Virus record (IMG/VR): IMGVR_UViG_3300042560_001323
Span: 179,167-243,166 of that record
Strand: one strand, 5' to 3'
Source of the DNA: a virus
DNA length: 64,000 bases
Of the stretch, positions 9,280-43,952 are shown one piece after another; the stretch's first letter is position 1, and each line of letters starts with the position of its first letter. Under the pieces are notes generated by a model. It was not told the origin of the DNA. It saw nothing but the letters and a program-made list of their open reading frames with translations, and did no database searches. The position numbers and the translations under genes were made by a program.

Positions 9280-11046
9280 TTAATAATTGTAATTCCAGAA
9301 ATAAGAATAGTCGTCATCTGCTGTGTGCCAAAGATTACCCTCGCTGTCTCTCTCTGCTTCCAGATAATTATCATATAATTCTGCAATTTCATTTGGGAGG
9401 GAATCTGCTGAAGATACAAATCCAAATGGAGTTGAATCATTTTCTTCTAGTTCTTTTTCGTGCTCTTCTCTTAGTTTTTTGCGGATATCGGTTTCAGTCA
9501 TTTCTTTGAAATATTCCTGAGTGCTTATCCAAGCAAATAATACAAGGCAGATTGTCAGGTCATCATTTTTACCTTCTTCTGCACTAAAACTATTATAACG
9601 AGAAACAAATGTTGTAAGTTCTCCAATAATATCCCTATCGTTAAAAATAAGTTTATCTTCTTCAATAAATGTCTTTAAGTTTAAGCAACCAGTTCTTTTT
9701 ACTGGTTTAGACATCTTAATGCCATATTTAACACCCTTACCTGCTAAATTTTGACCTGCGACTTGTCCACCTCTACCCAAAGTTTTAGTTTGAATAACAT
9801 TAGGGTAACCATATTCAGTGTGAAGAATATATGCAACCTGGGAATCATTATTCACCTCACATAAAATAAATGCATCATTATATGCACGTCCAACTGGTTC
9901 AATAACATCTGGATATCTTAAACTTGGAATATCGTTGTTTCTATATTTTGCAACTACTCTATACGGAATCTGCGTCGTGTCAAATACAACAAATGCGGAA
10001 TAATCTAATTCAACACCTTCAGCAACGTCTACGGTAATAACATAGATTTTACCTGGCATTGGTTCTTCATAAACGTCAAGAAGGTCTTGGGTTCTTATTG
10101 GCGCTTCAACTACTAAATTGGAAAGTTTAGAACCGCTAATAAGGGTATCAGATGAGCCTAAAAATTCACACTCATATTCAGCATCCCAACGGGACTGTCC
10201 AATATTGGCAATAGTCTCTTCTTTAAAGGCAACATCATACTTATCTTGCCAATAAACGCGCATAGGAACATACTTGTTTATTCGCTTCAGTGCATCATCC
10301 CACAGCTTATAGTAGTGGTTCATACCCGCCGGGGTTGAAACGATAATAACTTTAGATTCTTTACCGGAAGTAATAGTCGGATATACCGAACTCATAAATT
10401 CATCGGCAACTTGGTGAGGGACGAAAGCAAATTCGTCAAGAAAAATAATATTGTATGAGCCACCTCTGACTGATGATGCCGAAGTTGATGCGGAAAAGAT
10501 TTTAGAACCATTTTCTATTTCTAATGATGCCTTATTCCAAGAGATAACTCCCTGTTGAAGCCACTTTGGAAGATTTTCGTATCCCCTCTGTAATCTGCTA
10601 AGAAGTTCCTTTGCGGTGCTTGCCTTGTTTGCTAGAACTGCAATATTTACGTTATCATTAAAAATAGCATAATGTAGTAGAAATGCCACCACTGCGGTTG
10701 AATTATGTGAGACAATATTATTAGTATAATAAATATTTCCATTTTCAACATCAATCAAGTCATACATATTCGACTTAACAGATGTTCTTTCTACAGATAA
10801 TATTTTTTCTAAACCTTCTTTTGTTTGTATTAAATCTCCAACCTTTAAATTTTTACAATAAATTTCATTCCAATTTTCGTCATATAGTATATGATTATCC
10901 GCACAAACTAGGGATGTTTCGTTTTCTGTTACTAAAATCCATTCCTCATATTCTATAGTTTTCCCTATTCCTGAAAAAGATTGCCACCCAGATGGCGTTT
11001 CAACTTCCCATTCATCTGTTAATAGTTCTTCTATAAATTTAGCCAT
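9280..11046 (-). CDS. 17: Large terminase gp17, C-half, fused to split-intein C-fragment
   Basis: A 588-residue ORF. Residues 1-115 are an intein C-fragment ending IVSHN; residue 116 onward begins STAVVAFLLHYAIF, the exact continuation of the Walker A motif that stops at ...RQVGK in the N-half gene (12539-12910). The rest is a full TerL: Walker B IIFLDEFAF followed by the STPAGMNHYYKLW coupling motif, and the RNase H-like nuclease with ITVDVAEGVELDYSAF and the late Asp of KNDDLTICL. After trans-splicing the terminase would have about 558 residues. It is the ATP-driven packaging motor and headful nuclease docking on gp20. The N-half lies 1.5 kb upstream beyond a TnpB gene, so an active enzyme depends on splicing in trans. 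Confidence 0.93.
   Translation of the reverse strand: MAKFIEELLTDEWEVETPSGWQSFSGIGKTIEYEEWILVTENETSLVCADNHILYDENWNEIYCKNLKVGDLIQTKEGLEKILSVERTSVKSNMYDLIDVENGNIYYTNNIVSHNSTAVVAFLLHYAIFNDNVNIAVLANKASTAKELLSRLQRGYENLPKWLQQGVISWNKASLEIENGSKIFSASTSASSVRGGSYNIIFLDEFAFVPHQVADEFMSSVYPTITSGKESKVIIVSTPAGMNHYYKLWDDALKRINKYVPMRVYWQDKYDVAFKEETIANIGQSRWDAEYECEFLGSSDTLISGSKLSNLVVEAPIRTQDLLDVYEEPMPGKIYVITVDVAEGVELDYSAFVVFDTTQIPYRVVAKYRNNDIPSLRYPDVIEPVGRAYNDAFILCEVNNDSQVAYILHTEYGYPNVIQTKTLGRGGQVAGQNLAGKGVKYGIKMSKPVKRTGCLNLKTFIEEDKLIFNDRDIIGELTTFVSRYNSFSAEEGKNDDLTICLVLFAWISTQEYFKEMTETDIRKKLREEHEKELEENDSTPFGFVSSADSLPNEIAELYDNYLEAERDSEGNLWHTADDDYSYFWNYNY
10702..11046 (-). other. Split-intein C-fragment (TerL)
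   Basis: This covers residues 1-115 of the C-half gene. It contains the block B-like TSLVCADNHILYD as well as the C-terminal blocks NMYDLIDVENGNIYYTNN and IVSHN with the +1 Ser. Because block B is on this piece, the split point lies just after block A, the 'atypical split' of metagenomic TerL inteins such as AceL-TerL. The fragment has its own ATG (MAKFIEELLTDEW). Confidence 0.88.
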
Positions 11047-11140
11047 TTAAAAACTCTAAGCAAGTGTTCACGATAAAATTTGGACTTTTTCTATATTCTT
11101 CTTCTTTTATAGTAACAAAAACCAATAAAATTCAAAAACT

Positions 11141-12337
11141 CTATTGGGTTTCTAGACGCTTCATAGCAGATGCTAAATGATGTGAATCACCATTTAGTCT
11201 TAATTCCGCTCCACGCCAGTAATCGACGTACTCCGCCGATGAAATTTCTTTATCGGTTAGATTCCTCCAACCTTCCTTTAAAATATTAATAGAGGCATTC
11301 AAATCTCTATCGTGCTGACAACCACAAGAAAGACAAGTCCATTCCCTAACCGAAAGCTGCATCTTGTCTTCTTTATGACCACAGTTAGAACAAGTCTTAC
11401 TGGAAGGAAAGAATCGGTTAATTTTAACCAGGACTTTACCATACCAGTTGCACTTGTATTCCAACATAGAAACAAAAGTAGACCACGCCGCATCGCTAAT
11501 AGACTTCGCTAATTTATGGTTCTTCCGCATTCCAGAAACGTTCAAGTTTTCAAGAACTATCAAGTCAAAAGTGTTCACTAAAGCAGTAGACACATTATGA
11601 AGAAAGTAAGTTCTTGAATTAGTAATGAAATCGTGTACTTTAGCAACTTTAATTCGTTGCTTAATGTAGCGGTTACTACCTTTAGTTTTACGACTTAAAT
11701 GTTTCTGGGCTTTTTTTAGTTTCGCTTGGTTCTTGCGAAACCATTTAGGATTGTTAATGACTTGACCATTACTTAAAACCATCAGGTCTTTAATGCCCAA
11801 ATCAATACCTACTACCTTGCCGGTTGAGGGTATTGGATTGAGTTCTTGTTTTACCAGGATAGAAACAAAATACTTTCCTGTTGGTGTTTTAGAAACCGTG
11901 ATGATCCTGAAATCTGCATCCTCCGGGATTTCACGGTCAATAACAACTTTAATCCAACCAATTTTCTCAAGTCTTACCAGACCGTTTTCTTGGTCTAAAA
12001 CGAACTTTTGATTGGGTAATCTAAAAGACTGCCGATTAGATTTTTTCTTAAAAGAAGGTCTACCTAGTTTGATTTTACGTTTTTTATTGAAAAACTGTTT
12101 CTCAAATTCAATAAAGTCATTTCTTTTCTGTTGAAGGGTAGCGGCAGAAACTTCTTTAAGAAACTCAAATTCAGGAGTGTCTTTTAATGTCTTTTCTGTA
12201 ACTACTTCTTTTGTCTGACTATTGAAGTTCTCAACAAGTTTATTCCAAACAAACCTGCAACAGCCGAAAGTTTTCGCTAATATAACTTCTTGTTCTTTAT
12301 CTGGATAAATCCGAAACTTGTATGCTTTTAAGTGCAT
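11141..12337 (-). CDS. tnpB: TnpB RNA-guided nuclease (IS605 OrfB family), copy 1
   Basis: A 398-residue protein with the family's N-terminal MHLKAYKFRIYPDKEQ and the helix-turn-helix start with FVWNKLVENFN. The split RuvC acidic residues are in VVGIDLGIKDL (Asp), IVLENLNVSGM (Glu) and CQHDRDLNASINIL (Asp), and the four-Cys zinc ribbon is CSNCGHKED ... WTCLSCGC. All catalytic residues are present, so it should be active. TnpB uses an omega-RNA, made from the 3' end of the gene and the element's right end, to cut DNA next to a short motif. Position between split-intein gene halves suggests a homing role. It is highly similar to the gene at 41635-42831. Confidence 0.95.
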   Translation of the reverse strand: MHLKAYKFRIYPDKEQEVILAKTFGCCRFVWNKLVENFNSQTKEVVTEKTLKDTPEFEFLKEVSAATLQQKRNDFIEFEKQFFNKKRKIKLGRPSFKKKSNRQSFRLPNQKFVLDQENGLVRLEKIGWIKVVIDREIPEDADFRIITVSKTPTGKYFVSILVKQELNPIPSTGKVVGIDLGIKDLMVLSNGQVINNPKWFRKNQAKLKKAQKHLSRKTKGSNRYIKQRIKVAKVHDFITNSRTYFLHNVSTALVNTFDLIVLENLNVSGMRKNHKLAKSISDAAWSTFVSMLEYKCNWYGKVLVKINRFFPSSKTCSNCGHKEDKMQLSVREWTCLSCGCQHDRDLNASINILKEGWRNLTDKEISSAEYVDYWRGAELRLNGDSHHLASAMKRLETQ

Positions 12338-12359
12338 TTGCTCTTTGGTTAGTCGTAAT

Positions 12360-12368
12360 ACTATTTAT
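12360..12368 (-). promoter_or_regulatory. Late promoter-like motif ATAAATAGT before tnpB
   Basis: The minus-strand motif lies 23 bases upstream of the tnpB ATG and is inside the mobile element. Copy 2 has the equivalent CTAAATAGT at the same distance. Confidence 0.45.
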
Positions 12369-12477
12369 AAAACTTAATAGTTTAAGAGGAGGAATAAATC
12401 CTCCTCAACCTGAAAAGCACGACCAACCCAGGCATCTTTATTTAGTGAAGTTTCATTTCACTTTCTCAAACTTTTTC

Positions 12478-12576
12478 TTAAGACTCGGTTTGAACGTGAA
12501 TTGAAAGAGCTTGACCACTCTTAAATTCTTTCCCACAATCAAGACACTTCGGAATCTTTCTCTCTAATTTTGCCAT
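12478..12576 (-). CDS. Small zinc-finger peptide, possible homing-endonuclease relic
   Basis: A 32-residue ORF in another frame, overlapping the end of the TerL N-half gene by 38 bases. It contains KCLDCGKEFKSGQALSIHVQ, a C2H2-type half-finger (C-x2-C ... H) with the second His missing. Such fingers occur at the ends of phage HNH homing endonucleases. It may be the remaining start of an endonuclease gene that once filled the gap between the intein halves. It is short, so it could be chance, but the Cys-x2-Cys-G-K-x-F pattern argues against that. Confidence 0.45.
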   Translation of the reverse strand: MAKLERKIPKCLDCGKEFKSGQALSIHVQTES

Positions 12577-12910
12577 AAAATTCACCCACAGTTATTTCAA
12601 GTATTTCGCCAGTTTTTTTATTTCTGACTCTTACAATTGTATTTATGTCAAAACACTTTCCAACTTGTCTAGGACATAAGACAATATTAAATCTATTTTC
12701 CTGGAACGAAGTCAACATCCTTTCTTGAAAAGGATACATATTAAAATTCTGTAACCCGTGATCGAGGGTTACAATTTTCATATATTTTTTAGAAAAATAA
12801 ACAGAATCTTCGGAACATTTGGCTAGTTCCAAGATTTGCTCTTCTGTCAAATCGACTTTAGTATTCGCTTTTTTTAGAAGCGGATTACCAAGATAGTGCT
12901 GTTCGGGCAT
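12539..12910 (-). CDS. 17: Large terminase gp17, N-half, fused to split-intein N-fragment
   Basis: A 123-residue ORF. Residues 1-85 are the TerL N-terminus ending in the first half of Walker A (VLCPRQVGK), preceded by YPFQERMLTSFQENRF. Residue 86 is the intein Cys, and residues 86-123 are a 38-residue intein N-fragment. The ATG at 12910 is preferred over an in-frame TTG one codon upstream. The remaining 473 residues of the enzyme are encoded at 9280-10701. Without trans-splicing the ATPase has no complete P-loop. The gene lies just after the DUF6321-type gene and gp16, as in other cyanophages. Confidence 0.93.
   Translation of the reverse strand: MPEQHYLGNPLLKKANTKVDLTEEQILELAKCSEDSVYFSKKYMKIVTLDHGLQNFNMYPFQERMLTSFQENRFNIVLCPRQVGKCFDINTIVRVRNKKTGEILEITVGEFYGKIREKDSEVS
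12542..12655 (-). other. Split-intein N-fragment (TerL)
   Basis: It starts at Cys86 directly after GK of the Walker A motif. Block A is CFDINTIVRVRN, followed by TGEILEITVGEFYGKI. It is only 38 residues long, as in atypically split TerL inteins whose N-part holds block A alone. The partner fragment is at 10702-11046. Confidence 0.88.
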
Positions 12911-12940: not shown

Positions 12941-14314
12941 TTAACATTTCCATCTTCTACGGGCTGCTAGTCCTCTTGGTTTGTTCCAACTTCTTGAACG
13001 ACTGCAGAAATTTTTACGACGCTTCCAGGCTTTACTTCCCTTTTCAACATCTCCGGTTACTGGCGCCTTAAGGTTAGAACCAGTTGCACGATTGTATTTT
13101 TTTCTTCCTTTTGCTGTTAAACCGCCACCCGCTTCCACGGAAAGTTTTTCACCTCTGCCTACAGAAAGGCTAGGGCCAGCCTCTTCGAGATGATCAACTT
13201 CTTCTCCGATTGTTTTATTTTGAAGAAGATAGTTTTTTGACTTTGTATTGGGAAGCTGAATAATTGGCTGACCCACATTCTGGTTACCAACTTTATAACT
13301 TAAAACTCTTGCATCGGGATACACCTTAACAATGGCATCAGTTACTTCCTTCCTATTTGGAATCCGAACTTGGGGGAAGAAGAGTTGGCTGGTCATCATC
13401 TTTCCTCTCCAGGAGAAGAGGATCTGCATTACTTGACCATTCTGAACCGGTAGAGTTGCCTCCGATACTGGAACGCAGTTGGGGACTTCTTTCCCACCTT
13501 TTTTCTTAGTTCCAACCATCTCATAACCTTTCCAGCAGGGGTCTTTGCCTTTCATTTTTCTAGCCTCTTTAAGGCTAGCAGGAAGAACTAAATCAATAAA
13601 CTCAAATTTTGGGTTACCGAAAAGGTCAGTAACAATAGTTGATTCAGTTTGAACTTTCTCTACTTTTTTCAGTTCTGTGTAATAATTCGGTTTTTCTGCA
13701 AGATGTTGAAGTGCAATACCTTCTGCTTCTTCTTTATTGGTGGTATGCTCGCTTTCAACCTTAATGCCCATATTGAGTTGTTTTTGGATTCTCGCGGAAG
13801 ATACGCCGTGCTTGCCTGCAATATCCTCAACACTCATTACTGGCTTTGAGCCTTTTACATATCCTTTTTCCTTTTCTTTTTTATTTTCGGGACAGGGGCA
13901 TTCATCATCTTCGTTAAGTGAATTTAAAATTCTGTCTACGATTGTTGATTCCGTGCTAAATTTTGGTAATACCGATTCTTTTATTTTGTCAGTAATATCT
14001 TTTGTTAATTTACTGGTTGGAATTTTTGATTTTGCTTTGGTCCCAGCAGCAGGCCGTGAATGAGTTTCGGGGTTAATTTCAAACGATGATTCTTCTAACT
14101 CCTTACCAGTATTGAGATACTGTGCAGCATCTGTAGTAAAATCGGCTGCTCTCGTAATTTTAGATTGAATCCAGGCTGGAAGCTGTTGATTTTTACTTTT
14201 AATCTTTTTTCTTAAAATTGCAAGATTGGCTTCAATAGTATCTAATTCAACTGAAGACATATAACCTTCGGTATCATTCTTCATACCAGACTTAGCATTT
14301 TTACTTTTTGGCAT
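12941..14314 (-). CDS. Basic cyanophage protein with DUF5661- and DUF6321-like parts
   Basis: A 457-residue protein. Residues about 165-225 (SVEDIAGKHGVSSARIQKQL ... EEAEGIALQHLAE) match the DUF5661 pattern, with a small HTH-like element. A GKDPCWKGYEMVGTKKKGGK motif follows. The C-terminus (SVGRGEKLSVEAGGGLTAKG, KYNRATGSNLKAPVTG, RRKNFCSRS) matches the DUF6321 pattern found in T4-like cyanophages. The C-terminal part is strongly basic, suggesting nucleic-acid contact. The gene lies between the small and large terminase genes, so a packaging or head role is possible, but the function is not known. Confidence 0.7.
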   Translation of the reverse strand: MPKSKNAKSGMKNDTEGYMSSVELDTIEANLAILRKKIKSKNQQLPAWIQSKITRAADFTTDAAQYLNTGKELEESSFEINPETHSRPAAGTKAKSKIPTSKLTKDITDKIKESVLPKFSTESTIVDRILNSLNEDDECPCPENKKEKEKGYVKGSKPVMSVEDIAGKHGVSSARIQKQLNMGIKVESEHTTNKEEAEGIALQHLAEKPNYYTELKKVEKVQTESTIVTDLFGNPKFEFIDLVLPASLKEARKMKGKDPCWKGYEMVGTKKKGGKEVPNCVPVSEATLPVQNGQVMQILFSWRGKMMTSQLFFPQVRIPNRKEVTDAIVKVYPDARVLSYKVGNQNVGQPIIQLPNTKSKNYLLQNKTIGEEVDHLEEAGPSLSVGRGEKLSVEAGGGLTAKGRKKYNRATGSNLKAPVTGDVEKGSKAWKRRKNFCSRSRSWNKPRGLAARRRWKC

Positions 14315-14340
14315 TGAATTAGAAGCACAAGTTCATCTTA

Positions 14341-14348
14341 TTATTTAT
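14341..14348 (-). promoter_or_regulatory. Late promoter-like motif ATAAATAA
   Basis: The minus-strand motif lies 27 bases upstream of the start at 14314, overlapping the gp16 stop codon. Confidence 0.45.
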
Positions 14349-14779
14349 TCCACGACACCTTTTGGTTGTTGTCTTATAAGTTTTAATGCTTCTGCAGTTG
14401 TTCCAGTGAATACTACATTATTTGTAACAGTTGATGGACCTTTTTGAGATTTTTCTTCATTCATAACCTTCATTTTCTTCTGAAGGTCAATTAACTTGTC
14501 TGCTGCATCTGAAACGCTTTTGATAAGATGACTAACAACCTCATATCCTCTAGGTGTATCAAGTTCTTGGGCTAGGTCTAAGGCATTTGATATAGCCTCT
14601 TGACCCTTTTCAATAATCATATAGTAACTGTCTCTAGAGTATTTGTAATCTCCTTCAACATCTTCGGATACTTTTTGGATTGATTTTGGTTCTTCAACTA
14701 CTACTACTACATCCACATCAACAGGTTCTGCCAGATTGAAAGTTTCGTTTAGTTTACTGAACTTTTTAGGTCTTCCCAT
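14345..14779 (-). CDS. 16: Small terminase subunit gp16
   Basis: A 144-residue protein. The central region (YSRDSYYMIIEKGQEAI, AQELDTPRGYEVVSHLIKSVSDAADKLIDLQKKMK) is the helical oligomerisation core of T4-type gp16. The N-terminus has a short acidic stretch with a run of Val after MGRPKKFSKLNETF. It forms a ring that recognises viral DNA and stimulates the gp17 ATPase. It sits between gp15 and the terminase genes, in standard order. Confidence 0.9.
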   Translation of the reverse strand: MGRPKKFSKLNETFNLAEPVDVDVVVVVEEPKSIQKVSEDVEGDYKYSRDSYYMIIEKGQEAISNALDLAQELDTPRGYEVVSHLIKSVSDAADKLIDLQKKMKVMNEEKSQKGPSTVTNNVVFTGTTAEALKLIRQQPKGVVE

Positions 14780-14790
14780 AATATCACCCC

Positions 14791-15795
14791 TTAATTTATA
14801 TCAGAATCAAAGCCAAAACTGTCGCCATAAGGAATCAGTGAATTATCAGCTATGGTAATTCGTTTAACATTTGAACCTGAAACGTGTACCATAGCTGTTG
14901 TCCCATCTTGACCTCGTTTGACTTTTAGTTTATTGTTGTCCTTGGAGTCAACTAACATTTCTTCACCATTAATATCTATGTATGAATTTACTGCAATATT
15001 AGTTGCATCTACAACTTCAATTTGTTTATCATTTGCTGAAACTTCTTTTGTTAGGGTAGTTTCAACAATTCCGGTATAATTTTGAATGGCCCTTGGTGTG
15101 CTGCTTGAAACGACATCCCTTATAGGTGAAGTAGAGAGTTCTCCTGCAACAAGACCGATAGAAACTTTTTTAATGATTTGTGAACCAAGTGAACCAGAAG
15201 AGATTGGTCCAAATATATAAGTTTTTACAGTAAACTTTAAAGTATAAATTAGTGCCCGCCTTTCTTTGAAATCTCCCTCAAAATTATCTGTCATAGTAAT
15301 GTTATCAAGAACAATATCAAGGTCCCTTTTTTCGGATATTGAATCTAAAAGTGTCGCACTAATTTTAAGATTGGGTTGAAAATATGGAATAATCTGTTCA
15401 ATAATCTGGAACATATCATCATTGTGTTTTGTCATAATGTTCAACTCAAAGTTGAGATTATAAGGTGCCGGCATACTTACCACCCTTAAGACATTGTTAT
15501 TAATGTCCTTGGCGCAAAAAGAAGTTGCCGTGGTTAATTTTCTTGTTGAATCATAAGATAAACCAATCATTTCAAAAGACATTCTCGGTAATGTAATTTG
15601 AACAGGTTTATTGAGATCGGGAACTTCTCTTAACCGAGCTAAAAATTTTTGGGTTGGAGCATATGCAAGAGGGACTTTACCCTGAAAGAAGACCTCTCCC
15701 TGATCGTTGACTTGCCTAATCATAATATTTTCAAAGAGGCTACCGAAAACTATAACAGCTTTGCGGATGGATTCGTTGTAAAAATATTCAAACAT
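14791..15795 (-). CDS. 15: Tail terminator / sheath stabiliser gp15
   Basis: A 334-residue protein. The N-terminus (FEYFYNESIRKAVIVFGSLFENI), the APTQKFLARL and the RMSFEMIGLSYDSTRKL segments are typical of T4 gp15. After about residue 215 there is an extra domain with a DINGEEMLVDSKD ... VKRGQDGT pattern that also occurs in other structural proteins here (gp7, the 836-residue protein), so it is an insert relative to T4 (272 residues). gp15 caps the sheath and tube and joins the neck. Confidence 0.9.
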   Translation of the reverse strand: MFEYFYNESIRKAVIVFGSLFENIMIRQVNDQGEVFFQGKVPLAYAPTQKFLARLREVPDLNKPVQITLPRMSFEMIGLSYDSTRKLTTATSFCAKDINNNVLRVVSMPAPYNLNFELNIMTKHNDDMFQIIEQIIPYFQPNLKISATLLDSISEKRDLDIVLDNITMTDNFEGDFKERRALIYTLKFTVKTYIFGPISSGSLGSQIIKKVSIGLVAGELSTSPIRDVVSSSTPRAIQNYTGIVETTLTKEVSANDKQIEVVDATNIAVNSYIDINGEEMLVDSKDNNKLKVKRGQDGTTAMVHVSGSNVKRITIADNSLIPYGDSFGFDSDIN

Positions 15796-20925: not shown

Positions 20926-20934
20926 ACTATTTAG
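20926..20934 (-). promoter_or_regulatory. Late promoter-like motif CTAAATAGT
   Basis: The minus-strand motif is 21 bases upstream of the start at 20905. It overlaps the right end of the miniature TnpB derivative, so part of the promoter may have been supplied or displaced by that element. Confidence 0.45.
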
Positions 20935-21038
20935 TAACAAAAACCAATAAAAATAAAACTCTATTGATTTTCTAGACGCTTCATAGAAGATGCTAAGTGG
21001 TGAAAGTCAATATTTTAAGAGAAATAATAAATCCTCTT
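20932..21038 (-). mobile_element. Miniature TnpB-element derivative
   Basis: About 107 bp. In minus-strand order it has a left-end hairpin (AAGAGG ... CTCTT), then the last ~14 codons of a TnpB frame (DFHHLASSMKRLENQ plus stop), then the same right end (ATTGGTTTTTGTTACTA) as the two full copies. The whole tnpB core is missing. It keeps the segment from which an omega-RNA scaffold would be made. Its hairpin overlaps the stop codon of the 1696-residue baseplate gene. Confidence 0.75.
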
Positions 21039-30700: not shown

Positions 30701-33700
30701 GTTTTAATACCAATTGGCGAAACATCATAAGAGTATGCAAGTTTTTCACCGTTTGTGAAAAAGTGATTCTCTAACTGTAAAACATTTGATGCTACATTCA
30801 CAACAGATGAATTACTGCCGACAAAACTCCTATTAAAAATTGGGTCGCTATTATATTTTAAGTCAAATTGTTTATTGAAACCATCAAAACCTAGACTAAT
30901 ATCGTCAATAGTTAGAACCCTATTGCCTACCGTTTCTGAATAATCTTGGAGTATTCTATTATTAAAATAAACTTGGTTTGAACCTAAATTTGAATCTATC
31001 AGATAATTATTTTCTGTAACAAGATCATAATCCTCAACACAATTTAAATTAACTTCCGAATCATTAAAAATTATAATGTTGGTTAATGACTCGGTTTCAG
31101 ATGAGCCGGTTCCGATTATATTTTCTGACTCAACTACGAGATCACTAAATTTCTTAAAACCGGAGATATGATTTAGACTGCTAACTGCATTGTTCCAAGT
31201 TTGATAATCAACTTTTGATTTTAATGAATATGCAAAAGAATTATAGTAATTATTGTCTTGAATTCTTTGGAACTCGTTATCAAGGAACCCCTTTTCGGTA
31301 TTCCAACCTTTTTTAACTATAGATGAAGATTTAATAATATAACGTGAATTGAAATCATATACTGTAGAAATTTTACCCCCGGAACGAGAATCTGAACCAA
31401 TAATTAATTGACCGGGTGTAAACTGATCTGTTGTGGATATTGTTAGGAGTTCATTATCACTATTCCAAAACTGAACAATTCCCTTTAAATTGTCTGCCGT
31501 TACAACTTCACCAATTAAGAATAAATTTTTAGAAAGTTCTGTGATAAATTGTGGGAAGAATTTTTCGGGAACTACAGAACCCGATGAAACGGTTGAATTG
31601 TATACGCCAGGATATTCGGTGTCACTTAATTTGTTGGCCAAATTATAAGTTATGGAGCCGTTTGAACCGCCAATATTCGGGCTAATACTAGTAATAGTAA
31701 ATCTGGAGTAGTCATAAGAAGATGAATTGTAGCCTTTGGCGGATGAGTCGGTTAAAATTGATACATTTTCAACCAAAACTTTGTCTCCGATAGCAAATGG
31801 AAAATCTTCAATATTGCTATAACTTGTAGTGAGGACTATGGCAACATCTTTAGTTGTTTCATTGAAAGAAATTGAGCTGATACCAATTGCATTTGAGTTA
31901 TTTGTTGGTATAATAATAGGTTGAGCATTATTAATACCTTTGCTATTTTTAATAATTTGAACTTCAGAATCACCAAGTTGATATCTTAAATCAACACCCG
32001 GAACCGGCTTTAAAGTTAAGCCATCCAATAGAACTAAAGTTGGAGCAAAAATATAATTTCTTCCAGTTGAAACAACAGATATTGTTTTTAATGAAGTCTG
32101 GGGGGCTACAATGATAACTACTGGAGTTTGGGTGGACGGTGTAAGAGTTAAATCTGCAGGATAATCAAAACCAATGTTATTAATATTAACTCGGTTGACT
32201 GAGCCAATGGACTTACTAACTACTTCAAAAATTGCATTCCTTCCTTGGTTGGTTATAACTGAACTAATTCCTGGTAAAAATTTATAGTTGCTACCACCAG
32301 AAGTAACTCGTATCGTATTAACGGGGCCGGTTGTAGTTTTAGATGTTGTTGTGTATGTTACATTATTTGTATAAACAGCAGCCTCCGGGGTTGCATCAAC
32401 GCTGTATGTGAATGACGTTGAACCAACCCCGCTAATTGCATACGTTCCTGAATAACCGCTATCAACATAATTAAGAGTATTATATTTTGATGTATTTTCT
32501 TCATCAATGATGACTTGTTTATTTTTTCTGGGGGTTAATTTATAGAATAACTGATTTGGTAGATTTTCATCATAGTTTAAAGTTACTGTTGCATCTAAAT
32601 CTACACCGATACGTCCAGATTTAATTACATTAAATGACGGCCCGCTGAAAGTAGTTTCAAATTTATTAATAAATTGCTTGTCTGTATAAAAATCAAAATC
32701 AAAAGCTGGAACCAATTGGAAACCATCATTGTCAGACAAACTTGAGTCCGAAAGATCAAAAATTGCGGAATTATTTTTTACGATATTTATACTAGGATTT
32801 ACTTCTGAAATTGTTCCATACGAAGCATTAGAAAGAGAAATTATATTTGGCTCGCTTAAAGATGCATTATAATATGAACTAGACAAACTTATTACATTTG
32901 AATTCAGTACAATGACATAATAACTCGTATTGCTAATTAACCCAGTAGTCGGAACTAATGAAGTATGAAGAATCTTTTGTCCAGTAAAATAATTATGGTT
33001 GGGGATTTTTATCGTTCCATATATTATATTAACATCTGTGGCCAAAAACTCTCTGGGATTTACAAGTAGCCGTTGGGTTGCCTGATTGTATATAATTTTA
33101 ATGTTTTTTGTTGAATTGGGTGTGGCCGAAACTGTAATTAAATCGCCAACATTAAGCTCCGAACTAGTTTTGGGGAAAACTGATACTAAATTTTTATCTA
33201 CTTGACCAATAGTTGAATCATACGAAGTTATGATGCTATGCTTTTTACCAGTTCCATTAACATTAAAATAAAGAATATTTGCCCCACTCGTTGTGTTATA
33301 ACCAACAAAGTTTCCAGTAGCACCAACTCCAACCTTTTCAGTGGATAAGCCAACAAAATCACTTGAATACCTAACTGCATAGACGGTAGTATTATCTTTC
33401 AATAGCGAAGTTGTAATACCATTAGTTGATATGGTAATTTCAGTGCCACCATTTATTTTATATGTTAACTTTTCACCAGTTTTCAGATTATGATCTGGAA
33501 TATAGATTGATCTTGACGGAACAAAAATATTAGTTAGACCAACACCTGGGGTAGAAAATGTTATCGTCTTGCCGAGGCCAATTCCTACACATTCCTCTGG
33601 ATTAAAGTAAATTTCTTTATTGATAAAAGAATTATTGAAGTCTTGAATCTCTGCACTAAAAGAGAACTTTCTTGGTACTTCTTTTATCGTGACTCCCACA

Positions 33701-41571: not shown

Positions 41572-41634
41572 CAAAAATCGTTATACGCCAACTATTTCCT
41601 TATAATAGTAACAAAAACCAATAAAAGTAAACCT

Positions 41635-42831
41635 CTATTGATTTCCTAAACGCTTCACAGCAGATGCTAAAGGGTGAAAATCACCGCTCAGTCTTAATTC
41701 CGCTCCACGCCAGTAATCGACGTACTCCGCCGATGAAAGTTCTTTATCGGTTAGGCTGCGCCAACCTTCCTTTAAAATATTAATAGAGGCATTCAAGTCT
41801 CTATCGTGTTTTGAACCGCAAGACGGACAAGTCCATTCCCGAATTTTTAAAGGCATCTTGTCTTCCTTATGTCCACAAGAACTACAAGTCTTACTGGAAG
41901 GAAAGAATCGGTTAATTTTAACCAGGACTTTGCCATACCAATCACACTTATACTCTAACATAGTAACAAAAGTAGACCAAGAGGCATCCGAGATTGATTT
42001 GGACAACTTGTGATTCTTCAACATCCCAGAAACATTCAAGTCTTCAACCGAAATTACATCAAAAGTTCTAACCAGAGCTGTTGAGATGTTATGGAGAAAG
42101 TAAGTTCTGGAATTGGTAATGTATTCGTGTATTCTAGCAACTTTAATACGTTGCTTAATGTAACGATTACTGCCTTTAGTCTTGCGACTTAAATGCTTCT
42201 GGGCTCTTTTGAGTTTCGCTTGGTTCTTGCGAAACCATTTAGGATTGTTAATGGCTTGACCGTTTGAAAGAATGAACAAGTCTTTAATACCCAAATCAAT
42301 ACCTACTACCTTGCCGGTAGAGGGTATTGGATTGAGTTCTTGCTTAACCAGAATAGAAACGAAGTATTTACCGGTTGGAGTTTTAGAAACCGTGATGATC
42401 CTGAAATCTGCATCCTCCGGGATTTCACGGTCAATAACAACTTTAACCCAACCAATTTTCTCCAGTCTAACCACTGAATTTTCTTGGTCTAACTTGAACT
42501 TTTGATTGGGAAGTCTAAAAGACTGACGATTTGATTTCTTCTTAAAAGAAGGCCGTCCTAATTTGGCCTTTCTTTTCTTATTGAAAAACTGTTTCTTGAA
42601 CTCAATAAAGTCATTTCTTTTTTGTTGAAGTGTAGAAGCTGAAACTTCTTTAAGAAACTCAAATTCTGGAGTGTCTTTTAATGTCTTTTCGTTAATAAAT
42701 TCCTTAGAGTTACTGTTGAAGTTTTCAACGAGTTTATTCCAAACAAACCTGCAACAACCGAAAGTCTTCGCCAGTAAAACTTCTTGCTCTTTATCTGGAT
42801 AAATCCTGAACTTGTATGCTTTTAAGTGCAT
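41635..42831 (-). CDS. tnpB: TnpB RNA-guided nuclease (IS605 OrfB family), copy 2
   Basis: A 398-residue protein, same length as copy 1 and highly similar along its whole length. RuvC residues are intact (VVGIDLGIKDL, ISVEDLNVSGM, SKHDRDLNASINIL), and the zinc ribbon is CSSCGHKED ... WTCPSCGS. The differences are scattered substitutions without frame damage, as expected if both copies are kept active. The bases just past 41606 (TTATAAGGAAATAG...) would be its guide if the omega-RNA model applies. Confidence 0.95.
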   Translation of the reverse strand: MHLKAYKFRIYPDKEQEVLLAKTFGCCRFVWNKLVENFNSNSKEFINEKTLKDTPEFEFLKEVSASTLQQKRNDFIEFKKQFFNKKRKAKLGRPSFKKKSNRQSFRLPNQKFKLDQENSVVRLEKIGWVKVVIDREIPEDADFRIITVSKTPTGKYFVSILVKQELNPIPSTGKVVGIDLGIKDLFILSNGQAINNPKWFRKNQAKLKRAQKHLSRKTKGSNRYIKQRIKVARIHEYITNSRTYFLHNISTALVRTFDVISVEDLNVSGMLKNHKLSKSISDASWSTFVTMLEYKCDWYGKVLVKINRFFPSSKTCSSCGHKEDKMPLKIREWTCPSCGSKHDRDLNASINILKEGWRSLTDKELSSAEYVDYWRGAELRLSGDFHPLASAVKRLGNQ

Positions 42832-42855
42832 CTGCTCTGATTATTGGTTGGCAAT

Positions 42856-42864
42856 ACTATTTAG
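42856..42864 (-). promoter_or_regulatory. Late promoter-like motif CTAAATAGT before tnpB
   Basis: The minus-strand motif is 25 bases upstream of the tnpB ATG, inside the element, at the same place as in copy 1. Confidence 0.45.
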
Positions 42865-42871
42865 TAAAGTT

Positions 42872-42958
42872 TTATTTTATAAGGGGAGAAGAAATTCTCC
42901 CCACCTGAAAAGCGCCAACCAACCAGGCATCTTTATTTAGTGATGTTTTTACTGCCAT
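42872..42958 (-). CDS. Short ORF running into the TnpB element's left end
   Basis: A 28-residue ORF (MAVKTSLNKDAWLVGAFQVG...) with a very good Shine-Dalgarno (AAGGAG) eight bases before its ATG. The segment TSLNKDAW(V)GxAFQV is also encoded, without a start codon, in the left end of TnpB copy 1. It may be a real peptide truncated by the insertion, or left-end sequence that only looks coding. The function is unknown. Confidence 0.35.
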   Translation of the reverse strand: MAVKTSLNKDAWLVGAFQVGRISSPLIK

Positions 42959-43112: not shown

Positions 43113-43952
43113 TCAAATAGGGAAGGTTTTTTCGTGACCAACGCGAATACGAGGGTCAACCCAGATTTTAAAGCCCTTTTCCTTGGCTTTCAGGCAGAAA
43201 CCAACGTCTTCACCACAGAAATCAACGATTGCGCCATCTTCAAATGACTGAAGAAGCGGCGGCCACCAGGGATAATCCATTCCTTCAAACACACCTTTTT
43301 GAATCATCAGCCAGCCGCCACCGACATAATCACAACTAAAGGGCTTCTTGCGATTCATCATCGTTTCAATCTTCTCCATATTCATCACACCACCGTTCTT
43401 GCGGAACTCTTCGGCTTCTAGCCAGAATGCACAGGCAGTATGAACACGGTCTTCAGTTGAATACCAGCCAGATGCAATTGCATTAGTCTTGGTTTCATCC
43501 ACTAGTTGCTTATAGCCAACAAGTTCACCTGCTTCATTCTTAACTTCTTCATATGATACTGCCTCATCGGGTAGGGCAAGGTCACAAAGTTGCCAGAAAT
43601 GCTCTGCGGTGAAGGCAATGTCGCTATCAATCCACATTTGATAATCGTATTCAATCTGTCCCTGCCAAGGCTTTTGTTTGGGGCCAGCAAGAACATTTGC
43701 CCCGAGAACTTTACAGCGGGCAAAGTTCACCATACTACTGTAATCTTGGCTGATATGAAATTGCATATTGTTGCCTGCAATTTCAAAGCAGAGTTGAACA
43801 AAGTTCTTTAGGAAATTATAGGAACAACCGCGACCGGGAAGACAGAGCATAATTGTTTTGCCCTGCATCTTCTGTTTAATTTTTGCATAATCCCAATTTG
43901 GTTGGGATTCTTGTTGTGGCTCTTTAGCCTTGATTTGAAAACCTTTTGCCAT
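43113..43952 (-). CDS. GT-A-type glycosyltransferase-like protein
   Basis: A 279-residue protein. After a 30-residue linker there is TIMLCLPGRGCSYNFLKNF (nucleotide-sugar-binding strand), then YQMWIDSDIAF, where DSD is the metal-binding DxD motif of GT-A enzymes, and later DYVGGGWLMIQKGVFEGMDYPWW followed by FCGEDVGFCLKAKEKGFKIWV (the ED acid motif). This architecture recurs in cyanophage GT2-like proteins of unknown acceptor; modification of a virion or host surface is possible. The gene is transcribed away from the plus-strand late genes. Confidence 0.75.
   Translation of the reverse strand: MAKGFQIKAKEPQQESQPNWDYAKIKQKMQGKTIMLCLPGRGCSYNFLKNFVQLCFEIAGNNMQFHISQDYSSMVNFARCKVLGANVLAGPKQKPWQGQIEYDYQMWIDSDIAFTAEHFWQLCDLALPDEAVSYEEVKNEAGELVGYKQLVDETKTNAIASGWYSTEDRVHTACAFWLEAEEFRKNGGVMNMEKIETMMNRKKPFSCDYVGGGWLMIQKGVFEGMDYPWWPPLLQSFEDGAIVDFCGEDVGFCLKAKEKGFKIWVDPRIRVGHEKTFPI

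What the first reader, a model, noticed from the sequence alone, without database searches (positions are those of the whole stretch)
9280..12910. Fractured terminase with an atypical split intein and a TnpB gene in the gap
The Walker A motif of the packaging ATPase is cut between GK and ST: the first half carries a 38-residue intein N-part, the second a 115-residue intein C-part that already contains block B. Known 'fractured genes' have a free homing endonuclease between the halves; here the place is taken by an intact TnpB, a small RNA-guided nuclease. TnpB may act as the homing enzyme of a split intein, an arrangement I do not know as described. It also makes terminase activity depend on trans-splicing of two late products.
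Basis: partly seen in the sequence, partly recalled or inferred. Interest (0 to 1): 0.92.

Follow-up and report, generated by a model that had tools for sequence, protein, structure and literature searches.

The report
TnpB replaced a split-intein's homing nuclease
In a large phage, a DNA-packaging gene already broken in two by a known kind of split intein had its homing nuclease gene invaded and mostly replaced by a small RNA-guided nuclease element (TnpB), whose predicted guide is copied from the remains of the gene it replaced and so points at rival copies that still carry that nuclease.

Summary
TerL (gp17-type) is split inside Walker A (GK|ST): 85 aa + 38-aa IntN, then 115-aa IntC + 473 aa, with an intact TnpB between. 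The split intein is of a published type (atypical TerL inteins AceL/GOS-TerL; best PDB match is the engineered CatC).

The interpretation changes. The gap once held the usual free-standing Vsr/DUF559-like homing endonuclease (HEN). Its first 32 codons and last 23 codons survive on either side of the TnpB element, and related phages carry the intact HEN in the same place. TnpB is part of a phage-borne element (about 1.34 kb, covarying omega-RNA) present five times in this genome. The bases read as its guide are HEN 3' coding sequence: 1-4 mismatches in 20 to HEN genes of most near relatives, chance-level in intein-free terL. So TnpB is not placed to home the intein into unbroken terL. It is placed to cut HEN-carrying versions of the same locus.

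A second fractured terL (L128) holds a decayed TnpB element in its HEN, and a fractured uvsX (L246) holds an unrelated TnpB beside a possible nuclease relic. This shows recurrence, not enrichment. Splicing, cutting and spread are untested. New variant of a known kind.

The parts
12656..12910 (-). TerL N-extein (85 aa, ends PRQVGK, first half of Walker A)
   Evidence: 100% identical at protein level to contiguous TerL of L006 and L007
12539..12655 (-). Intein N-part, 38 aa (Cys1)
   Evidence: 59-69% identical to IntN of L126, L128, L130, L132, L134
12478..12576 (-). Relic of the HEN 5' end: 32 codons MAKLERKIPKCLDCGKEFKSGQALSIHVQTES, starting inside the IntN gene in another frame, as in intact relatives
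   Evidence: tblastn E 2e-5 to 9e-4 to N-termini of intact HENs in L150, L152, L155, L149, L144; C2H2-like finger
12447..12482 (-). 36-bp patch identical to G000:43352-43387 (3' end of an unrelated 83-aa gene); non-canonical junction at the left end
11110..12453 (-). TnpB element, left end to right end (about 1.34 kb)
   Evidence: boundaries shared with other copies in the genome and with copies in other viral contigs
12439..12445 (-). CTAAATA, T4/cyanophage late-promoter-like motif in the left end (one of two)
   Evidence: a late-promoter-like motif (ATAAATA or CTAAATA) at this position in all 11 copies compared
12357..12371 (-). TTTATAAATAGTATT: second late-promoter-like motif, upstream of tnpB
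   Evidence: ATAAATA or CTAAATA at the equivalent place in all copies
11141..12337 (-). tnpB, 398 aa, RuvC residues D179/E263/D345 and zinc ribbon present
11110..11240 (-). Predicted omega-RNA scaffold (3' end of tnpB plus right end ...TTACTA)
   Evidence: consensus structure with 9 pairs showing two-sided changes; kept in copies that lack tnpB
11090..11109 (-). Predicted guide TAAAAGAAGAAGAATATAGA = HEN coding sequence
   Evidence: 1-4/20 mismatches to HEN genes of most near relatives, 5-7 (chance) to intein-free terL
11039..11110 (-). Relic of the HEN 3' end: IKEEEYRKSPNFIVNTCLEFLNG*, stop overlapping the IntC start
   Evidence: HEN profile E 1e-7; tblastn E 8e-6 to L125; HEN C-terminus of L008
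10702..11046 (-). Intein C-part, 115 aa, contains block B, ends SHN
   Evidence: PDB 6DSL CatC E 1e-12, VidaL E 7e-7
9280..10701 (-). TerL C-extein (473 aa, starts STAVVAF)
   Evidence: Terminase_6N and Terminase_6C; phrog_2

Best explanation
This was an ordinary fractured terL: two gene halves joined after translation by an atypical split intein, with a free-standing Vsr-like homing endonuclease between them. A phage-borne, TnpA-less TnpB element entered that endonuclease gene near its 3' end, and most of the endonuclease was lost, leaving 32 N-terminal and 23 C-terminal codons (shown by relics and relatives). TerL must still be made by trans-splicing (inferred from conserved splicing residues and an incomplete Walker A in each half). 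The omega-RNA made from the tnpB 3' end and right end reads endonuclease 3' coding sequence as its guide (shown as sequence). The inferred consequence is that in a co-infected cell TnpB cuts versions of the locus that still carry the endonuclease, and repair copies the TnpB version over them: an RNA-guided element that preys on a homing endonuclease. It cannot, with this guide, move the intein into unbroken terL.
For: HEN relics on both sides, in the right order, orientation and overlap with IntN and IntC. Intact HEN in the same gap in most fractured-terL relatives, and a HEN-profile hit in 147 of 181 (redundant) loci with such an IntC, of several host genes. Sharp element ends shared with other copies. 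In HEN genes of relatives the orthologous insertion point reads ...CATA|TTAAAG, resembling the A(A/T)TA-type left flanks of other copies and the empty site of the L007 element. Guide matches HEN, not terL. TnpB catalytic residues intact and dN/dS about 0.1; omega-RNA structure supported by covariation. A second terL case, L128: decayed TnpB element of the same left-end type inside the HEN, with a HEN C-terminal relic after its right end. TnpB 'homing' to element-less sites and a guide taken from the right flank are published proposals or results for ISDra2 (PMC8612924; PMC10278001).
Against: No experiment. The closest HEN known still has one mismatch at guide position 2, within the TAM-proximal 12 nt that matter in ISDra2 TnpB, so cutting of known relatives is unproven. 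The left junction is not canonical (36-bp patch, no TAM), so the element as it stands may not excise. TnpB elsewhere in this genome sits in ordinary intergenic places, so presence in a HEN could be a harmless landing. No enrichment: about 18 non-redundant TnpBs in 6.45 Mb of records with fractured loci predict about 0.3 in the gaps, 1 intact case seen. The guide core also occurs in four unrelated viral contigs.
Confidence: 0.72

Rival explanations
1. Passive passenger: the HEN gene in a split-intein gap is dispensable DNA, so a TnpB element that jumped there survived. TnpB is maintained only as part of its own element and does nothing to other versions of this locus.
For: Four other TnpB copies and six omega-RNA-only copies lie elsewhere in the genome; TnpB in gaps is not significantly more frequent than background; other loci have lost the HEN with no replacement (L156, L164, L136).
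Against: tnpB is intact and under purifying selection, and its guide-position bases match HEN-bearing versions of the site, which are common among relatives.
Confidence: 0.25
2. One reading: TnpB took over as the homing enzyme that carries the split intein into intein-free terL.
For: TnpB occupies the place of the HEN, and TnpB homing to element-free sites is an accepted idea.
Against: The guide is HEN sequence; intein-free and contiguous-intein terL match only at chance level; no other tested omega-RNA guide in the genome matches terL.
Confidence: 0.04
3. Assembly or binning artefact joining a split terL with a TnpB repeat.
For: Metagenomic contig with several TnpB copies; a 36-bp repeat lies at the left junction.
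Against: Copies differ by about 15%, so they do not collapse; both flanks are relics of one HEN gene; L128 shows the same kind of arrangement in another contig.
Confidence: 0.03

Closest known systems
Atypical split TerL inteins (AceL-TerL, GOS-TerL, engineered Cat)
   Same: Short IntN, long IntC that contains block B, terminase large subunit host; IntC matches CatC 6DSL at E 1e-12. Published IntN 25 aa (AceL-TerL) and 37 aa (GOS-TerL) (PMC11766414); here 38.
   Different: Nothing essential in the intein; what lies between the halves differs.
Fractured genes (Dassa et al. 2009): split intein plus free-standing homing endonuclease
   Same: Two gene halves in one direction, split intein, HEN overlapping the IntN and IntC genes; relatives of this locus fit that description.
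   Different: The HEN is reduced to two relics and replaced by a TnpB element.
IS200/IS605-family TnpB elements (ISDra2 TnpB)
   Same: TnpB domains, right-end omega-RNA, guide from the flank, TAM-like left flanks at other copies.
   Different: No Y1 TnpA in the record; carries late-promoter-like motifs; this copy sits in a homing endonuclease gene with a non-canonical left junction.
IStrons (group I intron plus IS605 element)
   Same: A splicing element and an IS605-type element share one locus, so the host gene product is spared.
   Different: Here splicing is at protein level, in trans, and the TnpB element is nested in the HEN rather than fused to the splicing element (comparison from general knowledge and the abstract of PMC4227781).

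Membership tests
Atypical split TerL intein | Short IntN (25-37 aa in published cases) and IntC of about 104-115 aa with block B | tested here: met
   38 aa and 115 aa
Atypical split TerL intein | Sequence relation to the Cat/AceL/GOS family | tested here: met
   6DSL CatC E 1e-12
Atypical split TerL intein | Protein trans-splicing activity | not testable with these tools
   Splicing residues conserved only
Fractured gene | Host gene in two ORFs, each with one intein part, at a site where relatives have a contiguous gene | tested here: met
Fractured gene | Intact free-standing homing endonuclease between the halves | tested here: not met
   Only 32 + 23 codons remain; intact in relatives
TnpB RNA-guided nuclease | RuvC catalytic residues, HTH and zinc ribbon | tested here: met
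TnpB RNA-guided nuclease | omega-RNA from the 3' end of tnpB and the right end | tested here: met
   Two-sided changes in 9 of 41 pairs, 16 copies; no Rfam match; transcription not shown
IS200/IS605 transposon | TAM immediately 5' of the left end | tested here: not met
   This copy has a 36-bp patch there; other copies have A(A/T)TA-like flanks
IS200/IS605 transposon | Y1 transposase TnpA in the element | tested here: not met
   Absent from the whole 243-kb record; many TnpB elements lack tnpA
Homing enzyme of the split intein | Cleavage target lies in the intein-free host gene | tested here: not met
   Guide matches HEN, terL only by chance

The most novel reading that the evidence does not exclude
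An RNA-guided nuclease preys on a protein-guided one: TnpB elements invade homing endonuclease genes of fractured loci, write the endonuclease's own sequence into their guide, and then convert endonuclease-bearing versions of the locus in mixed infections, a nested drive that has arisen more than once (terL in two phages, possibly uvsX with an unrelated TnpB).
Probability: 0.35. Interest if true: 0.82.

Novelty: new variant of a known kind. Interest (0 to 1): 0.62.

Why it matters
Homing endonucleases and TnpB are the protein-guided and RNA-guided versions of the same selfish trick. Here one has displaced the other inside an essential packaging gene that a split intein keeps working. The relics and the guide make a directly testable prediction of what the TnpB targets. 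It also shows that fractured genes can outlive their homing enzyme and serve as safe landing sites for other mobile nucleases, and it gives a natural case of competition for one site: class-3-like contiguous intein, split intein with HEN, split intein with TnpB, and split intein alone all occur at terL GK|ST.

Tried and rejected
TnpB as homing enzyme for intein-free terL: rejected by guide matching. The zinc-finger ORF 12478-12576 as an unrelated small gene: rejected, it aligns with HEN N-termini at the same place. Enrichment of TnpB in fractured gaps: tested on 84 records (6.45 Mb), not significant. Rfam for the omega-RNA: no match in the window or in L128. An exact guide-core search of IMG/VR gave 6 contigs: 2 truncated HENs in fractured terL and 4 unrelated genes, so the core alone is not specific. 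IntN alone against PDB: no hit, too short. HEN nature of the uvsX relic in L246 (EVKS...): no supporting database match, kept as inference only. The profile hit to the N-terminal relic was weak; pairwise tblastn was the better test. Dassa et al. 2009 itself is not held and could not be read; what is said of it rests on general knowledge and on papers that cite it.
Full report
WHAT IS THERE. The window is the last 64 kb of a 243-kb viral record. On the - strand a T4-type terminase large subunit is broken at GK|ST of Walker A. The upstream half (12910..12539) is 85 aa of TerL plus a 38-aa intein N-part; the downstream half (11046..9280) is a 115-aa intein C-part plus 473 aa of TerL. The C-part holds block B and ends SHN before S+1, with these residues invariant in 13 relatives. 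Its best solved relative is CatC, engineered from the AceL/GOS TerL inteins (E 1e-12), then VidaL. Published IntN lengths are 37 (GOS-TerL) and 25 (AceL-TerL) (PMC11766414). So the split intein is a member of a known kind.

THE ELEMENT IN THE GAP. TnpB (398 aa) has all three Pfam domains and close relation to ISDra2 TnpB (E 1e-70). Comparison with other copies in the genome and in other viral contigs fixes the element at 12453..11110. dN/dS against other copies is 0.10-0.16; within this genome copies differ by dS about 0.5-0.6, so they are old and separately maintained. The last ~130 nt before the right end fold into a consensus structure with two-sided changes at 9 pairs across 16 copies, including copies without tnpB. 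All 11 left ends compared carry two late-promoter-like motifs. No TnpA lies in the record.

THE LOST HOMING ENDONUCLEASE. Fractured terL relatives in viral contigs usually hold a ~340-aa endonuclease in the gap (DUF559/Vsr-like). It starts inside the IntN gene in another frame and ends on the IntC start with ...CLEFLNG*. In the window, 12576..12478 and the codons just before it encode VNFMAKLERKIPKCLDCGKEFKSGQALSIHVQ against VNFMKNSRKKVILTCLDCGEVIKGGSHMSRHVK (L149) and NFMKKSRKKTILTCLDCGKVVCGGKHLSHHIQ (L152) (E 2e-5 to 9e-4). 11110..11039 encodes IKEEEYRKSPNFIVNTCLEFLNG* against IKEEDYRQNPDNVVKICLEFLN (L125; E 8e-6; profile E 1e-7). Both ends of one lost gene therefore flank the TnpB element. 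The left junction carries 36 bp identical to the end of an unrelated gene at 43352 in the same genome, which suggests template switching during repair (inference); the right junction looks canonical.

WHERE THE GUIDE POINTS. In ISDra2 the last ~16 nt of the RNA come from DNA just outside the right end (PMC8612924). Here that is TAAAAGAAGAAGAATATAGA. At the orthologous codons of HEN genes the mismatches in 20 are: L126 1; L145, L149, L157 2; L125, L144 3; the L152-L158 group 4. More distant HENs match worse (L130 and L132 5; L129, L134, L135, L150 no better than chance). Intein-free or contiguous-intein terL score 5-7, equal to shuffled sequence. Across all loci then held, HEN genes of fractured terL made up the best matches apart from one stray one-mismatch site (L343), and no guide tested matched terL. 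In the HEN genes the site reads CATA|TTAAAG, resembling the A(A/T)TA left flanks of other copies and the empty site of the L007 element (GTTAATA|AATATGC). So the cis guide is aimed at HEN-bearing versions of the locus.

OTHER CASES. L128, a different phage: split terL whose gap has a left end of the same type, a scrap of tnpB (profile E 4e-4; Pfam OrfB_IS605 E 0.0056, below its cut-off), a hairpin right end, and then the HEN C-terminus RNNPQECVLKCVDFLNG*. L246/L190: uvsX split by a canonical split intein; a TnpB of another family begins about 40 bp after IntN, and between its right end and IntC lies an open frame with an E-V-K motif that may be a nuclease relic (no database support). At the same uvsX site L253 has an intact HEN. 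Among 84 records with fractured loci (6.45 Mb) there are about 18 non-redundant TnpBs, so about 0.3 would fall in gaps by chance; one intact case was seen. Recurrence is shown, preference is not.

STATES OF THE SAME SITE. At terL GK|ST I find: no intein (L009-L012); a contiguous 329-aa LAGLIDADG intein starting P/S/A with Cys in block F, class-3-like, in two contigs with about 97% identical TerL C-exteins (L006, L007); split intein with HEN (most of L125-L166); split with truncated HEN (L126); split with nothing (L156, L164); split with TnpB (window; decayed in L128). The split intein thus outlives its homing enzyme.

MECHANISM AND CONFIDENCE. Shown: anatomy, relics, element ends, guide sequence and its matches. 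Inferred: trans-splicing, omega-RNA production, cutting, conversion. The arrangement was not found in the held literature, which omits most subscription journals.

Noticed in passing
G000:63042-63213, 92826-92961, 93425-93529, 112468-112622, 129510-129642, 200098-200181 (the last = window 20932-21015, -): Six omega-RNA/right-end copies without tnpB; at least three (92k, 93k, 112k) fuse a left end directly to the omega-RNA, like mini-elements. The five intact right ends each have a different flank, so they could supply guides in trans.
   Followed up: partly
window 41605-42948 (-) and G000:22661-24011, 30910-32254, 14199-14981: Four more TnpB copies (one truncated) of the same family, mostly in intergenic places; the window copy at 41605-42948 sits just after an ATG (ATGGCAGTAA|).
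   Followed up: partly
L006:5029-6015, L007, L013-L018, L028: Contiguous 329-aa LAGLIDADG intein with P/S/A at position 1 (class-3-like) at the same terL GK|ST site in near relatives.
   Followed up: partly
L238/L246 (IMGVR_UViG_3300027784_000010): Fractured uvsX with an intact TnpB of another family in the gap; possible nuclease relic before IntC; the same contig has a fractured gp41-type helicase without HEN.
   Followed up: partly
L134 / L163: terL apparently broken by intein parts at three sites, with HENs in two of the gaps.
   Followed up: no
L007:1-156: Another element of the same TnpB family sits directly upstream of terL in a close relative; the window has the empty site.
   Followed up: partly
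TnpB left ends, e.g. window 12453-12340: A long inverted repeat in the left end covaries between copies (e.g. GGTTGGTCGT/ACGACTAACC, GGTTGGTTGGC/GCCAACCAA), with late-promoter-like motifs in and beside it.
   Followed up: no
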